This document shows, piece by piece, positions 56,941-64,000 of a DNA stretch of 64,000 bases. Below the pieces are notes generated by a model. That model saw only the letters and a list, made by a program, of their open reading frames with translations. It made no database searches and was not told the DNA's origin. Every line of letters begins with the position of its first letter. Position 1 is the stretch's first letter. A program made the translations under genes and the position numbers. Source of the DNA: Cloacibacillus evryensis DSM 19522 (GTDB taxonomy: Bacteria; Synergistota; Synergistia; Synergistales; Synergistaceae); assembly GCF_000585335.1 (NCBI RefSeq), contig NZ_KK073872.1:2037283-2101282 (forward strand), read 5' to 3'.

Positions 56941-57076
56941 CTTTTAATCCACACGAGCGTGAGCTCGTGACTTTTTTCCCGAGCAGGGCCGCCACGATGC
57001 CGCCATTTTAATCCGCACGAGCGTGAAGCTCGCGACCATGCGCGTGTGCGGGTTATCTATGGCACAGGTATTTTAA
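56941..57076 (-). CRISPR. Degenerate trailer end of type I-C-like CRISPR array
   Basis: Two decayed repeats at 56941-56971 (one base missing in the loop region, first base changed) and 57005-57036 (two substitutions), separated by a 33-nt spacer. A second 33-nt spacer (57037-57069) is followed by the first 7 bases (ATTTTAA) of a third repeat at 57070-57076. The rest of that repeat lies at 60813-60841, on the far side of the IS. Decay at this end and the repeat orientation mark it as leader-distal. Confidence 0.9.
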
Positions 57077-57131
57077 GCCCAAACTTTTCCATCTTCTAGG
57101 TACTAGAGGAAGTTAACAGGAGCTTCTTGGT

Positions 57132-58565
57132 TTAGACCTTTAATCCCAGAAGCTCCAGAACCTTTGCGGTCTTCTTGGTGATAATGGTCGTTTTCCACTC
57201 CTTGCCCTGAAGCTGCTTACGGATTCCGGAGAGATAAAAGATACAGTCGCGAATCGAAAACTTTTGCAGCATCTCCGCATCCTTCATTCTTGAATAAAGC
57301 CTGTAAATTATCATCAGAGAAATATGGTTGATAAAAGCCCATGCCTCAAACGAAACATCCTTCTGCATATAGCTTACATCGGCCTCAAGCGTATTCTTCA
57401 ATACGTCAAACGATTCTTCAATCGCAGCCCGCTTCTTATAAAACTCATAGACATTCCTGCCGTCCGCTTCAATATTAGTGCGTATCAGCAATACCCCCAT
57501 CTTTCCAGCCCTTTCAAAAAGCCCCTCTTCGGTATAACCATCCACATGCGACGCGATCCTGCTCATGTAATCGCGCTGCTCCCGAAGCTCAAGATCCTTG
57601 TCGAGATAAGTAAACACCTTGCCCGCCGCATTACCGTCCGCGTCCTTTATTATCTCCTCGAAGAACCAGACAGGGCGGTCGTTAAACAGAAAAGTCCCCT
57701 TATAATCCCTGGCGCCTATCCTATCCTTATTGAAATACCTGCTGTTCCTGCGAAGAGGCACTATATACTTCAGACCGCACGAATCCATCATCTTGAAATT
57801 ATAATCAGAACCAAAACCCTTATCTGCGATCACCACCATATCCTTCACACCAGATTCAGCCACTGCCTCGCGAAAAGAGCTGACATCGCAGATATTTCCG
57901 GCAAACGTCCGATAATAGACGGGAGCCGCCTCAGGCTTAAGAGAAAAGGCATACATAAGATTGACCTGAGGGGAATAATCAGGCGTATGGCAATACCCCT
58001 GCTTAGCGTTCAGCATATTGTCAGAATGGGAAGGAATGCGAGTGCCGTCGAAAAGGATATACTCCGTGCCGGAAACAAAACCCTTCATAAAATCGACCAT
58101 CGCGGGACGTCTGTCGCCAAGCGCCGCAAGAAAACCGGACATAGCTTTTGAAGAAAGATCCAGCCCCGGCAGTTCCACAGAAAGAAAAGAGCGCACATAA
58201 CCTTCATGGAGGCGCTTGAACGGCTCCATAGAAACGATCCTCAGCAGCGCTAAAACGTAGATATACCTCCAGCACTCAGGAAAACGCTTCTGAAGTTCAG
58301 TGCGGATATCGCCGGACATATCAAGCAGCAGCTTAGACGCGCCGTACTCCACGTCGGGTTTAGGCTCTGCGCTCACTAAACAGCTATTTTTAGGAATCAA
58401 GCCGTTCTCAGTGATACGTCCAAGATAAGCGCCGGAGATTTTCTTGGCGCGTTTCTTTTCTTTATCGTAAACAGTAGTGCGTTCGTAAAGATAAAACCTA
58501 CCGTTTTGTTCCTTGATCTCTTTTCCCGGACCTTTGTAAGCTGCGACCCAATCAGGCATAGACAT
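57132..58565 (-). CDS. IS4/IS1634-like DDE transposase of the outer element
   Basis: 477 residues from the ATG at 58565 (MSMPDWVAAYKGPGKEI; GGAGG 8 bp upstream); a longer frame from 58643 lacks a ribosome binding site. The DDE catalytic pattern is visible as ILFDGTRIPSHSD (first Asp, near 180), DMVVIADKGFGSDYNF (second, near 245) and YKKRAAIEESFDVLKN (Glu, near 385, in the Y-R-E-K arrangement of the IS4 superfamily). The C-terminus ends near KTAKVLELLGLKV. It appears complete. Confidence 0.88.
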   Translation of the reverse strand: MSMPDWVAAYKGPGKEIKEQNGRFYLYERTTVYDKEKKRAKKISGAYLGRITENGLIPKNSCLVSAEPKPDVEYGASKLLLDMSGDIRTELQKRFPECWRYIYVLALLRIVSMEPFKRLHEGYVRSFLSVELPGLDLSSKAMSGFLAALGDRRPAMVDFMKGFVSGTEYILFDGTRIPSHSDNMLNAKQGYCHTPDYSPQVNLMYAFSLKPEAAPVYYRTFAGNICDVSSFREAVAESGVKDMVVIADKGFGSDYNFKMMDSCGLKYIVPLRRNSRYFNKDRIGARDYKGTFLFNDRPVWFFEEIIKDADGNAAGKVFTYLDKDLELREQRDYMSRIASHVDGYTEEGLFERAGKMGVLLIRTNIEADGRNVYEFYKKRAAIEESFDVLKNTLEADVSYMQKDVSFEAWAFINHISLMIIYRLYSRMKDAEMLQKFSIRDCIFYLSGIRKQLQGKEWKTTIITKKTAKVLELLGLKV

Positions 58566-58585
58566 GTCAAGACCTCCAAGATGTA

Positions 58586-58608
58586 CATAGTACCCAGTAA
58601 GTACTATG
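58586..58608. promoter_or_regulatory. Perfect hairpin upstream of the outer transposase
   Basis: CATAGTAC / GTACTATG with a 7-nt loop lies just upstream of the GGAGG. It may shield the transposase ribosome binding site when read through from outside, a common IS safeguard. This role is an inference. Confidence 0.4.
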
Positions 58609-58612
58609 ATTA

Positions 58613-58696
58613 TAATACAAAAAGAGATATTCTGCAATAGCAAACAGTAAAGAAATACGTTGCTATTGCAGAATATCTTTTATATGTGTGAAAAAG
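58613..58696 (+). repeat. 84-bp direct repeat, left copy
   Basis: Identical to 60689-60772. It starts TAATACAAAAAGAGATATTC and ends ATATGTGTGAAAAAG. It contains a perfect 19-bp inverted repeat (AGATATTCTGCAATAGCAA and complement). The pair brackets the inner IS exactly, so it is best read as its target duplication. Confidence 0.92.
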
Positions 58697-58833
58697 CGGG
58701 TCTTTGACACTTTTCATCTAAAAAACACTTAAAAAAGTCGGTAATAGGCTTATTTTTTTGTCAAATCTTCTTATGTGGATATTACGTATTGTGTCGTATT
58801 GTGTTATAATAAGCGCATATGGAGGCGATTTAT

Positions 58834-60384
58834 ATGAGGCTTATGAAGTCTGTTTCTCCGAACGCTGTTTCTCTCTATGTTATCAAATCAATTAACGTCA
58901 ACGGAAGACGTTCTACTAAGATCGTCGAAAAACTTGGTACTTATGCTCAGCTCAAGGAAAAGCTCGGCGGCGAGGATCCAGAGGAATGGGCCATACGCTA
59001 TATTGAAGAGCTGAACAAAAAGGAAAAAGAGGGCGCAGAGCCGGATGTTATCGTGAAGTATTCTCCTGCCAGGCTTATAGAGAAAGGGGAACGCCGTTCT
59101 TTCAACGGCGGATATCTCTTTTTACAGTGGATATATTATGCCCTGGGGTTGGATAGGATCTGCCAAAAGGTGGCAGACAAGCATGCGTTCTGTTTTAATT
59201 TGAATTCTATTTTATCGCGTCTGGTCTACAGCCGCATTATTTTCCCTGCCTCCAAGCTGGCTACGCTGCGTTTGTCAGAAGCTTTCCTTGAGGCCCCGGA
59301 TTTTGCGCTGCATCATCTTTACAGGGCGCTTTCTGTCCTGGCCGCGGAGTGCGATTATATCCAGTCTGCGCTGTATAAGGCAAGCGGGAGGGTGTTTGGC
59401 CGCAGTACGGGGGTGGTGTATTACGACTGTACCAATTATTATTTTGAGATCGAGCAGGAGGATGAGGAAAGGCGCTACGGCTGCAGCAAGGAGCACAGGC
59501 CTAATCCTATTGTGCAGATGGGGCTTTTTATGGATTACGAAGGTATTCCGCTTGCTTTCTGCATCAACCCGGGCAATACGAACGAGCAGGTTACTTTGCA
59601 GCCGCTTGAGCAGAAGCTGATGGATGATTTCAAGCTTTCTAAATTTGTGGTCTGCACGGACGCTGGGCTTGCTTCAGACGCCAACAGGAAGTTCAACGAC
59701 GGCGTGGACAAAGCTTTTATTACGACTCAGTCTATAAAGAAACTAAAGAAGTATCTGCGGGAGTGGGCTCTGGATACGTCCGGCTGGAGGATGAAGGGCT
59801 CTGATAAAAATAAGACTTATGACTTGTCTGTCGTTGAGAAGGAGGCGGAAAATGACGAGAAAGCGGCGGAGTCGTACGGGGATAAAATATTCTATAAAGA
59901 ACGCGGAATGAAGGAAAACAAGCTGGAACAAAATCTTATCGTCACTTATTCTCTAAAGTACAGGGAGTATCAACGAAAAGTACGCGGGCGGCAGATAGAG
60001 CGCGCCGAGAAAACGATCAAATCCGACCCGGGAAAGCTTGATAAGATCAACGCCAACGATTACAGACGTTTCATAAAGCGCGAGATGGTGGATGAGAAGG
60101 GTAATGAAACGCAGGCAAAAGAACGTTTCTCCATAGACAGCGCGCAGATAGAGAAAGAGGCGGCTTATGACGGTTTCTACGCCGTGTGCACCAACCTTGG
60201 CGACGACGCGGAGACAGTGGCGGGCATATCGCACGGACGTTGGGAGATCGAAGAGTGCTTCCGTATAATGAAGAGCGAATTTAAAGCGCGGCCGGTGTTT
60301 CTTCGCCGCGAGGAACGGATAAAAGCGCACTTCCTTACTTGTTTTATTTCACTGCTCATATACAGGCTGCTTGAAAAAAGCTGA
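58834..60384 (+). CDS. IS1634-family transposase, C-terminus frameshifted
   Basis: 516 residues from the ATG at 58834 (MRLMKSVSPNAVSLYVIKSI; GGAGG 8 bp upstream). The N-terminus with a repeated-strand SINVNGRRSTKIVEKLGTY is typical of IS1634 transposases. Catalytic segments are VVYYDCTNYYFEIEQED (near 195), FVVCTDAGLASDANRKF (near 275) and HGRWEIEECFRIMKSEF (near 470). The frame stops at LLEKS-TGA (60384). The -1 frame from the A6 run carries on with KLNYKYTSTEIIQELRDMNF and ends with TAG at 60587, which looks like the true C-terminal ~65 residues. One lost A would explain it. Confidence 0.85.
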   Translation: MRLMKSVSPNAVSLYVIKSINVNGRRSTKIVEKLGTYAQLKEKLGGEDPEEWAIRYIEELNKKEKEGAEPDVIVKYSPARLIEKGERRSFNGGYLFLQWIYYALGLDRICQKVADKHAFCFNLNSILSRLVYSRIIFPASKLATLRLSEAFLEAPDFALHHLYRALSVLAAECDYIQSALYKASGRVFGRSTGVVYYDCTNYYFEIEQEDEERRYGCSKEHRPNPIVQMGLFMDYEGIPLAFCINPGNTNEQVTLQPLEQKLMDDFKLSKFVVCTDAGLASDANRKFNDGVDKAFITTQSIKKLKKYLREWALDTSGWRMKGSDKNKTYDLSVVEKEAENDEKAAESYGDKIFYKERGMKENKLEQNLIVTYSLKYREYQRKVRGRQIERAEKTIKSDPGKLDKINANDYRRFIKREMVDEKGNETQAKERFSIDSAQIEKEAAYDGFYAVCTNLGDDAETVAGISHGRWEIEECFRIMKSEFKARPVFLRREERIKAHFLTCFISLLIYRLLEKS

Positions 60385-60587
60385 ACTATAAATATACCAG
60401 CACGGAAATAATCCAAGAACTGCGCGACATGAACTTTCGCGAGGAAAAAGGCAATGGGTTTGTCCCTTCTTACACAAGGACAGATCTAACAGACGCCCTG
60501 CATGAAGAGTTTGGCTTCAGAACGGACTATCAGATTGTAAGCCAAAAGAAAATCAAAGAAATCTTCAAACAGACGAAATCCTGTTAG
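60385..60587 (+). pseudogene. Frameshifted C-terminal extension of the IS1634-family transposase
   Basis: The -1 frame continues the transposase through NYKYTSTEIIQELRDMNF, VPSYTRTDLTDALHEEFGF and KKIKEIFKQTKSC to a TAG at 60587. This is a plausible domain end for the family. The shift occurs at CTTGAAAAAAGCTGA (60369-60384 area). Confidence 0.7.
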
Positions 60588-60628
60588 ACATTACTCACTT
60601 TTCGGCAAAAAGTAAAGAGCTCTTTAAT

Positions 60629-60661
60629 TCAGTTATACCATGGGTTAAGAGCTCTTTTTAT
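60629..60661 (+). terminator. Probable terminator of the inner transposase
   Basis: AAAGAGCTCTTTAA (about 60614-60627) and TTAAGAGCTCTTTTTA (about 60646-60661) form a hairpin with a T-run after the second arm, between the transposase end and the right inverted repeat. Confidence 0.5.
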
Positions 60662-60688
60662 TGTTGAAAAGTGTCAAAGACGGGATTT

Positions 60689-60772
60689 TAATACAAAAAG
60701 AGATATTCTGCAATAGCAAACAGTAAAGAAATACGTTGCTATTGCAGAATATCTTTTATATGTGTGAAAAAG
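60689..60772 (+). repeat. 84-bp direct repeat, right copy
   Basis: Exact copy of 58613-58696 on the other side of the inner IS. Beyond it the DNA (TTACGCTCGGATGGTCCC) is the remaining right end of the outer element. Confidence 0.92.
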
Positions 60773-60812
60773 TTACGCTCGGATGGTCCCTAGACTATGG
60801 AAAAGTTTGAGA

Positions 60813-61022
60813 TTAATCCACACGAGCGTGAAGCTCGTGACCGACTTCCCCCTACAGCCGGACGCCGTCAGCGGGATTTTAATCCACACGAGCGTGAAGC
60901 TCGTGACCCTCCGCTTCGCACTCCTTCGTGTCAAAAGTCCAATTTTAATCCACACGAGCGTGAAGCTCGTGACGGCCTGTGTAGTCGATGTGTATTACGC
61001 TTGCCGGATTTTAATCCACACG
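60813..61022 (-). CRISPR. CRISPR array, first block inside the IS
   Basis: The remainder of the IS-split repeat (60813-60841, TTAATCCACACG onward), two complete 32-bp repeats (60876-60907, 60942-60973) and the first 15 bases of another (61008-61022), with three 34-nt spacers. Orientation is the same as the main block. The repeat is of the type I-C kind: on the minus strand it begins GTCACGAGCTTCACGC and ends TCGTGTGGATTAAAAT. Confidence 0.95.
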
Positions 61023-61035
61023 TGTGGATTAAAAT
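61008..61035. repeat. 28-bp perfect palindrome at the inversion junction
   Basis: The first 15 bases of a minus-oriented repeat (ATTTTAATCCACACG) merge, sharing CG, with the last 15 bases of a plus-oriented repeat (CGTGTGGATTAAAAT). The result is perfectly self-complementary. Confidence 0.95.
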
Positions 61036-61424
61036 GAAATGCAACATGCAAAGCGGCTCCGGCATTTTGTCACGAGCTTCACGCTCGTGTGGATTAAAAT
61101 TTTTATATACTGTACAATCGCACGATTGATAACATCGTCACGAGCTTCACGCTCGTGTGGATTAAAATATTTGCAAGGTTTGTATACGTGGTGTAACGAC
61201 CTTGTCACGAGCTTCACGCTCGTGTGGATTAAAATTACGGTTTGGGCCCCGGGAGGCAACGGCGTGGATAAGTCACGAGCTTCACGCTCGTGTGGATTAA
61301 AATCGTGGGAGTTCTGCAACTCACAGCCGCATGAGTTGTCACGAGCTTCACGCTCGTGTGGATTAAAATAGAGAAGGAACCGAAGAACAAGTTGGAGAGA
61401 TCGCGTCACGAGCTTCACGCTCGT
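61023..61424 (+). CRISPR. Inverted CRISPR block with six spacers
   Basis: Five complete repeats (61069-61100, 61137-61168, 61204-61235, 61272-61303, 61338-61369), a half repeat at the left junction and a 20-base partial repeat at 61405-61424 all run in the opposite orientation to the rest of the array. The six spacers are 33-36 nt, like those elsewhere. The repeat sequence is unchanged, so the inversion is recent relative to repeat decay. Minus-strand transcripts from the leader would read this block antisense. Confidence 0.95.
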
Positions 61425-61445
61425 TCGGATGGAAAGCAAGCTAGA
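61425..61445. other. 21-nt scar at the right inversion junction
   Basis: Between the truncated plus-oriented repeat and the next normal repeat lie only 21 nt (starting TCGGATGGAAAG). A full repeat end of 12 nt and a normal 33-36 nt spacer would be expected. Part of a repeat and probably part of a spacer were lost when the inversion formed. Confidence 0.8.
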
Positions 61446-64000
61446 ATTTTAATCCACACGAGCGTGAAGCTCGTGACTATTCCGCGACGCCGGCATCAGC
61501 GCGACACACATCATTTTAATCCACACGAGCGTGAAGCTCGTGACCTTCCTCCTTCACATCAATTTTTAAGCGCTGATAATTTTAATCCACACGAGCGTGA
61601 AGCTCGTGACTGTAACAAATGTTTGGCGTGCGGTAAGTCTTGGATTTTAATCCACACGAGCGTGAAGCTCGTGACTCAAGGCGCTGAACCGCTTCGGTGA
61701 TTCCGAGCTATTTTAATCCACACGAGCGTGAAGCTCGTGACTTTATCCGGATTTCGACGAGGATGAAAAGCTGTCGATTTTAATCCACACGAGCGTGAAG
61801 CTCGTGACGATTCCGGTGCGCCGCTGCGACGCGATCAGCAAATTTTAATCCACACGAGCGTGAAGCTCGTGACAAATTTTACCTTTATGGAGCGGATCAG
61901 TTGCCGCATTTTAATCCACACGAGCGTGAAGCTCGTGACTCTTCCTGATCTTTTGACTTGTCGGGATCTTCGATTTTAATCCACACGAGCGTGAAGCTCG
62001 TGACTTGAACAGGCCGGTGCGGCGGCAAACACGGCAAAATTTTAATCCACACGAGCGTGAAGCTCGTGACTGCAGGAGCGGATCGTTATCTCGTGTGTAA
62101 CGATAATTTTAATCCACACGAGCGTGAAGCTCGTGACGCGGGCGCGTTGGTGACATCATTATGCGTATTACGATTTTAATCCACACGAGCGTGAAGCTCG
62201 TGACGAGACGCGCGGTGTTGTCTCAATCTAAGGAGGCGTTATTTTAATCCACACGAGCGTGAAGCTCGTGACCCTCACGACGGGCGGGAAACGTCGGGCT
62301 CGCGCCCATTTTAATCCACACGAGCGTGAAGCTCGTGACTTTCGACGATTATCGGCTATGGCCGTTTTTGATGATTTTAATCCACACGAGCGTGAAGCTC
62401 GTGACGCGAGAGCGTCAGGCCGAGACGGGCCGAAAGGTGAATTTTAATCCACACGAGCGTGAAGCTCGTGACTAAGAGTAATATCGCATTAAAAGCAACA
62501 CTTGCAATTTTAATCCACACGAGCGTGAAGCTCGTGACGCAAACCTAAGCCCAAAGAGCCGGCAGATGATCGATTTTAATCCACACGAGCGTGAAGCTCG
62601 TGACAAGTTTATCGCCACGACCGAAACGGATATCACAGTATTTTAATCCACACGAGCGTGAAGCTCGTGACACAGAGAGCTCCGCCGTCATTGCCTTTGC
62701 CAGCTTATTTTAATCCACACGAGCGTGAAGCTCGTGACCAGTCCGCTCAGTTCAACTTTATGCTGCGGCTCATTTTAATCCACACGAGCGTGAAGCTCGT
62801 GACCAAATTCGTCCCAGTCCTGGAAGACGACGGAAAATATTTTAATCCACACGAGCGTGAAGCTCGTGACGCGGTGCTGCTGGAGAGGTCAAGCCCACCG
62901 TAGCAATTTTAATCCACACGAGCGTGAAGCTCGTGACGCCCTTGAAGAATGTTTTCCGTTCGCTAATATCATTTTAATCCACACGAGCGTGAAGCTCGTG
63001 ACTACGCCGCTACAAATAATGCTACAATGGTTATAGATTTTAATCCACACGAGCGTGAAGCTCGTGACGGTTCTTTTGGCGGCGTGGCCGACTCGCCCGA
63101 TGCATTTTAATCCACACGAGCGTGAAGCTCGTGACGTACCCTTCAAGGCTGTCGTCGTAGGTCGGCCTATTTTAATCCACACGAGCGTGAAGCTCGTGAC
63201 ATCGCGCGCTCTACGTAGCCGTCTGCAAAGACAACATTTTAATCCACACGAGCGTGAAGCTCGTGACTTTTATTTTCTGTGGAGATGAAAACCTTAATCT
63301 ATTTTAATCCACACGAGCGTGAAGCTCGTGACCTCCGCACAACGGCGAACCGCGCGCCGTTAGACGGAATTTTAATCCACACGAGCGTGAAGCTCGTGAC
63401 TCATTCTTTTGCACAAAGAGGCCGGTGGTCACGCAATTTTAATCCACACGAGCGTGAAGCTCGTGACATCTCATTCATCTCACCAGTATTATCATTGTTC
63501 GGATTTTAATCCACACGAGCGTGAAGCTCGTGACCTTTTGAGTCAGACAGTTACAGCGGCAATGATTTATTTTAATCCACACGAGCGTGAAGCTCGTGAC
63601 GCGTTGACCGCTTTCATACGGTTTTCGGCCTGATCATTTTAATCCACACGAGCGTGAAGCTCGTGACGAGGGTGTCGGCTTTTGTTACTGCGCCGGGGTG
63701 ATTTTAATCCACACGAGCGTGAAGCTCGTGACGCCGCGAAGGGCGTTTCGACGCTTACTGCTTCGCCGATTTTAATCCACACGAGCGTGAAGCTCGTGAC
63801 GTGCGCGGCTGGGCGGCGCGGCGGTCTTTCGTTAAATTTTAATCCACACGAGCGTGAAGCTCGTGACCCGATCACCGTAGCAGGTATTCAGAGCATACGC
63901 ATTTTAATCCACACGAGCGTGAAGCTCGTGACGTTTTCGTACTTGCGGAGAGCGTGGGAATTAAGCATATTTTAATCCACACGAGCGTGAAGCTCGTGAC
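61446..64000 (-). CRISPR. Main CRISPR array block, 39 repeats, continues past window
   Basis: 39 complete 32-bp repeats with 38 spacers of 33-36 nt (repeat starts at 61446, 61513, 61579, 61644 and so on to 63969). On the plus strand each repeat starts ATTTTAATCCACACGAGC and ends GTGAAGCTCGTGAC, and I see no variants. The stem CACGAGC/GCTCGTG and the 3' handle GTGGATTAAAAT on the minus strand match type I-C repeats. The last repeat ends exactly at 64000, so more array, the leader and perhaps the cas genes lie to the right. Short open frames through the array are artefacts of the repeat. Confidence 0.98.

What the first reader, a model, noticed from the sequence alone, without database searches (positions are those of the whole stretch)
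61008..61445. A six-spacer block of the CRISPR array is inverted in place
All repeats on both sides run minus-strand, but five full repeats plus two partial ones between 61021 and 61424 run plus-strand with unchanged sequence and normal spacing. A simple direct-repeat array can lose spacers by recombination but should not invert. The repeat's own palindromic stem (CACGAGC/GCTCGTG) may have provided the inverted homology. Spacers in this block would be transcribed antisense from the normal leader and probably give no usable crRNA.
Basis: partly seen in the sequence, partly recalled or inferred. Interest (0 to 1): 0.82.

Follow-up and report, generated by a model that had tools for sequence, protein, structure and literature searches.

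The report
Flipped block inside a CRISPR array
Near the old end of a very long bacterial CRISPR immune-memory array, a block of six memory units sits backwards in the DNA, apparently from a rare one-off rearrangement, so those six memories are probably no longer usable; large surveys almost never find such a flip.

Summary
In a type I-C array (142 perfect repeats on the minus strand, leader and intact cas genes to the right), window 61023-61424 runs the other way: five perfect plus-strand repeats, a half repeat at each end and six unique spacers. Flipping it back restores one perfect 32-nt repeat at the left. The right junction lacks about 29 nt (half a repeat plus about a third of a spacer). 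No other array in the genome carries this repeat, none of the spacers recurs in the array, and the array's only other broken repeats are an insertion-sequence (IS) site and two worn trailer-end copies. Most likely this is a real, single, non-programmed inversion by microhomology or template-switch joining. Misassembly is unlikely but cannot be excluded without reads. Twenty-two other arrays in the phylum show no flip. Published surveys report no inversions in 198 tuberculosis isolates and under 0.01% of gut array pairs. It is a rare curiosity, not a new system.

The parts
61023..61424 (+). Inverted block: two half repeats, five intact repeats, six spacers, all in the orientation opposite to the rest of the array
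61008..61035 (.). Left junction: perfect 28-bp palindrome ATTTTAATCCACACG|TGTGGATTAAAAT, two head-to-head half repeats
   Evidence: the only copy in the genome at up to 3 mismatches
61069..61100 (+). Intact inverted repeat 1
   Evidence: 0 mismatches
61137..61168 (+). Intact inverted repeat 2
61204..61235 (+). Intact inverted repeat 3
61272..61303 (+). Intact inverted repeat 4
61338..61369 (+). Intact inverted repeat 5
61405..61424 (+). Right junction: first 20 nt of a plus-strand repeat, cut off
61425..61445 (-). Remnant (21 nt) of a truncated spacer; about 29 nt (half a repeat plus 12-13 nt of spacer) are missing before it, judged from the mean unit length of 66.3 nt
60876..60973 (-). Last two intact normally oriented repeats on the trailer side of the block
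61446..64000 (-). Normally oriented array on the leader side; continues to genome position 2107992, where the leader and cas2-cas1-cas4-cas3-cas7-cas8-cas5 begin
57077..60812 (-). Insertion sequence (IS1634/IS4-like transposase 57132-58643) inside a repeat, TTAA target duplication at 57073 and 60813, itself carrying a nested IS1634-family element (58697-60683) with an 89-bp duplicated flank
56941..57036 (-). Two degenerate ancestral repeats, the trailer end of the array beyond the insertion sequence

Best explanation
This is a real, single, non-programmed inversion of about 400 bp inside an otherwise regular type I-C CRISPR array. One break or template switch fell inside one repeat, with no base lost. 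The other fell about six units towards the leader, where roughly 29 nt (the second half of a repeat and the start of its spacer) disappeared. The piece between was rejoined backwards at 2-3 bp of microhomology (ACG/CGT). The likely route is RecA-independent joining: fold-back template switching at a stalled fork, helped by the hairpin-forming repeat, or rejoining of two breaks. Functionally the six spacers are now antisense to the leader transcript and most likely silent; immunity held by the other 140-odd spacers should be unaffected. Shown here: the architecture, the restored repeat, the missing bases and the uniqueness. Inferred: the molecular route and the silence of the spacers.
For: Five perfect plus-strand repeats with normal spacing between minus-strand repeats. 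Flipping restores a perfect repeat. All six spacers are unique, so this is not a duplication. All copies of this repeat in the genome lie in this one array: 144 reverse and 5 forward genome-wide, against 142 perfect plus two 2-mismatch minus copies and 5 plus copies here. The junctions are the only broken repeats in the array besides the IS site and the degenerate trailer-end copies. The 28-bp junction palindrome occurs once in the genome. Twenty-two other arrays in the phylum are uniform in orientation.
Against: No raw reads or second strain were available. No relative held shares these spacers (for the genus). The pre-inversion sequence at the right junction is unknown, so microhomology there cannot be tested.
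Confidence: 0.72

Rival explanations
1. Inversion by recombination between the 7-bp stem arms (CACGAGC in one repeat, GCTCGTG in another), followed by loss of the hairpin tip at the left junction and of about 16 nt at the right one.
For: The arms exist in every repeat and fold stably. The predicted left product is an 18-bp hairpin, of the kind that hairpin nucleases such as SbcCD are known to cut (own knowledge). Total loss, about 29 nt, is the same as in the main model.
Against: Neither predicted junction is present as such; it needs two extra deletions where one event suffices; 7 bp is far below the homology RecA needs (own knowledge).
Confidence: 0.13
2. Assembly or sequencing artefact in a highly repetitive array.
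For: Nearly 150 identical 32-bp repeats are hard to assemble; no reads could be inspected.
Against: The genome is a single 3,488,464-bp contig. An error at repeats would join at whole repeats and keep one orientation, whereas here both junctions are truncated, base-specific and contain no complete repeat. Read-chimera hairpins would duplicate the spacers in reverse, and none is duplicated. The block is only about 400 bp, within one long read.
Confidence: 0.1
3. Insertion-sequence-driven inversion: two oppositely oriented copies flanked the block, recombined and one was lost.
For: A nested pair of insertion sequences sits in the array about 210 bp to the left; further copies exist elsewhere in the genome.
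Against: No terminal repeat, TTAA duplication or other insertion remnant at either junction.
Confidence: 0.03
4. A programmed, reversible switch that turns six spacers on or off.
For: The block now carries 32-bp perfect inverted homology to its neighbours, so further flips are possible by homologous recombination.
Against: The two ends do not carry matching inverted recombination sites; sequence was lost at one end; no promoter-like site that would read the block was found above shuffle level.
Confidence: 0.02

Closest known systems
Deletion and duplication of repeat-spacer units in CRISPR arrays (reviewed in PMC8047081)
   Same: Rearrangement within one array without new spacer capture
   Different: Those keep the direct orientation and whole repeats; here the orientation is reversed and the junctions cut through repeats
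Large chromosomal inversions ending at CRISPR loci in Thermotoga (DeBoy et al. 2006, cited in PMC4869251; paper itself not held)
   Same: Inversion with CRISPR repeats at the ends (recalled from memory)
   Different: Those join separate arrays and invert large regions (from memory); here about 400 bp inside one array
Template-switch inversion of the segment between short inverted repeats (PMC8604942)
   Same: A segment between short inverted sequences is flipped
   Different: Described there in yeast and bounded by inverted repeat arms; here junctions have only 2-3 bp of microhomology and a deletion
Type I-C CRISPR-Cas
   Same: Cas1c above cut-off, Cas8c, Cas5c, Cas7 and Cas3c matches, I-C-like 32-nt repeat with GTC...TTCAC...GTGGATT
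   Different: cas3 lies between cas7 and cas4 rather than first in the operon; Cas5 and Cas7 score below the curated NCBIfam I-C cut-offs

Membership tests
Type I-C CRISPR-Cas array and locus | I-C-type cas1 and cas8c next to the array | tested here: met
   Cas1c 492 bits, cut-off 385; Cas8c E=2.9e-186, Cas3c E=3.5e-96
Type I-C CRISPR-Cas array and locus | All effector genes open | tested here: met
   cas5, cas8, cas7, cas3, cas4, cas1 and cas2 are each open reading frames
Type I-C CRISPR-Cas array and locus | Cas5/Cas7 above curated I-C cut-offs | tested here: not met
   Cas5d 63.5 bits against 85; Csd2 111.4 against 182.25; a divergent member, though PADLOC profiles still pick Cas5c and I-B/I-C Cas7. 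A score threshold, not a defining biological feature.
In-place inversion of an array segment | Reversed repeats with unique spacers between normally oriented repeats | tested here: met
In-place inversion of an array segment | Flipping back restores the ancestral junction | tested here: inconclusive
   Perfect at the left, about 29 nt missing at the right
In-place inversion of an array segment | Un-inverted array in a sister strain | not testable with these tools
   One genome per species held; the one congener held shares no block spacers
In-place inversion of an array segment | Spacer polarity against protospacers and PAM agrees with the block's own repeats | tested here: inconclusive
   No protospacers found for block spacers
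Site-specific invertible switch | Matching inverted recombination sites at both ends | tested here: not met
   Left end palindrome, right end truncated repeat and spacer

The most novel reading that the evidence does not exclude
The array is unstable and flips: inverted repeats created by the first event let RecA keep inverting segments, so the population holds mixtures of sense and antisense spacer blocks that change which immune memories are expressed.
Probability: 0.04. Interest if true: 0.75.

Novelty: new variant of a known kind. Interest (0 to 1): 0.42.

Why it matters
CRISPR arrays are treated as ordered, one-directional records. An internal inversion shows that orientation can be broken, which would mislead tools that infer array direction and spacer age, and leaves a scar of microhomology-type repair inside an array that can be compared between strains. 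It also offers a natural test of whether antisense repeats are processed into crRNA. It does not reveal a new system.

Tried and rejected
Protospacers for the block spacers to test polarity by PAM: none in phages, plasmids, IMG/VR exact 20-22-mers for all six spacers, or the phylum beyond weak chance hits. Origin from a second array: rejected, all copies of the repeat lie in this array. Inverted duplication: rejected, spacers unique. Insertion-sequence footprint at the junctions: none seen. Promoter that could read the block from the left: none above shuffle level. The junction palindrome in other sequenced genomes: none. Related loci by Cas1 in genome contigs: no confirmed hit. The apparently better flip solution 61027/61445 (score 55) was rejected: it reads the already intact repeat at 61446 as restored and leaves a broken left repeat. 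Comparing the outer insertion sequence with its second copy to fix its exact ends: the match strings were not found in the fetched locus, so the ends rest on the inverted repeats and the TTAA duplication.

Full report
What is there. The window ends inside a long CRISPR array. The 32-nt repeat, read from the leader, is GTCACGAGCTTCACGCTCGTGTGGATTAAAAT. In the genome it has 142 perfect copies on the minus strand from 2098158 to 2107992 and five perfect copies on the plus strand. The array runs from the leader on the right to the trailer on the left: cas2, cas1 (type I-C), cas4, cas3, cas7, cas8 and cas5, all open, lie to the right, while degenerate repeats at window 57005 and about 56941 mark the trailer end.

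The inverted block. The plus-strand copies start at 61069, 61137, 61204, 61272 and 61338 with unit lengths 68, 67, 68 and 66, inside the range of the rest (65-69 nt, mean 66.3). A half repeat lies at each end (61023-61035 and 61405-61424). Six spacers of 33-36 nt lie between. None recurs in the array, so the block is not an inverted copy. Chance is excluded: shuffled sequence gives no match.

Junctions. The left junction is ATTTTAATCCACACG joined to TGTGGATTAAAAT, a perfect 28-bp palindrome that occurs once in the genome. Reversing 61020-61424 (or the three equivalent choices up to 61023-61421) rebuilds a perfect 32/32 repeat there. The right junction is GTCACGAGCTTCACGCTCGT joined to TCGGATGGAAAGCAAGCTAGA, after which the normal array resumes. 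With a mean unit of 66.3 nt, and 37 nt present in the restored unit, about 29 nt are missing: half a repeat and 12-13 nt of spacer. The only other damaged repeats in the array are the one holding the insertion sequence and the two degenerate copies at the trailer end.

How it arose. One inversion with a small deletion at one end accounts for everything. The four equivalent solutions mean 3 bp of inverted microhomology. The repeat's hairpin (folding energies -11.0 and -12.3 kcal/mol for the two strands as RNA) may still have promoted a template switch. Insertion sequences about 210 bp away left no trace at the junctions. No other array in the genome carries the repeat, so the block did not come from a second array. 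The exact route is inference.

Is it an artefact? The contig is a complete 3.49-Mb sequence, the junctions cut through repeats at specific bases, and no spacer is duplicated. These points speak against assembly error and read chimeras, but reads were not available, so about 10% remains.

Function. Transcribed from the leader, the block is antisense. The reverse complement of the repeat also folds into a hairpin, but the flanking bases of the crRNA handle would be wrong; that Cas5c needs them is from own knowledge. A promoter scan found no candidate that would read the block from the left. The six spacers are therefore probably silent; this is inferred. Their targets could not be found, so a PAM-based polarity test was not possible.

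How unusual it is. In 22 other arrays next to cas1c genes in the same phylum, each array was uniform in orientation (one lone opposite match in L034 lies far from its array). A gut metagenome study reports spacer inversions in fewer than 0.01% of related array pairs (PMC11307328). A study of 198 M. tuberculosis isolates found no partial or global inversion (PMC7708916). A review of array rearrangement discusses deletions and duplications; a search of its text for inversion found only an inverted promoter-guide cassette in an engineered plasmid (PMC8047081). No paper describing an inverted block inside an array was found in the searches made; the library is open-access only, so an earlier report may exist.

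Verdict. Observation confirmed, inversion very likely real, mechanism probably microhomology or template-switch joining. It is a new variant of known array rearrangements, not a new kind of system.

Noticed in passing
window 57077-60812: An insertion sequence split a CRISPR repeat at its TTAA and itself carries a second IS1634-family element with an 89-bp duplicated flank; the parts beyond it are the old trailer end of the array. Further copies of each lie elsewhere in the genome.
   Followed up: partly
genome 2101618-2101668 (just past the window end): One spacer is 51 nt instead of 33-37 because of an 18-nt tandem duplication inside it (ATCGCTTTGCCGATGTTG twice).
   Followed up: no
L065 2290-8395: The I-C operon has cas3 between cas7 and cas4 rather than at the front, and Cas5 and Cas7 fall below the curated I-C cut-offs; a divergent I-C layout.
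   Followed up: partly
L011 array, spacers 26 and 56 and spacers 83, 89 and 107 counted from the trailer side: Groups of spacers share stretches of 12 to about 20 nt, as if taken from overlapping or related protospacers.
   Followed up: no
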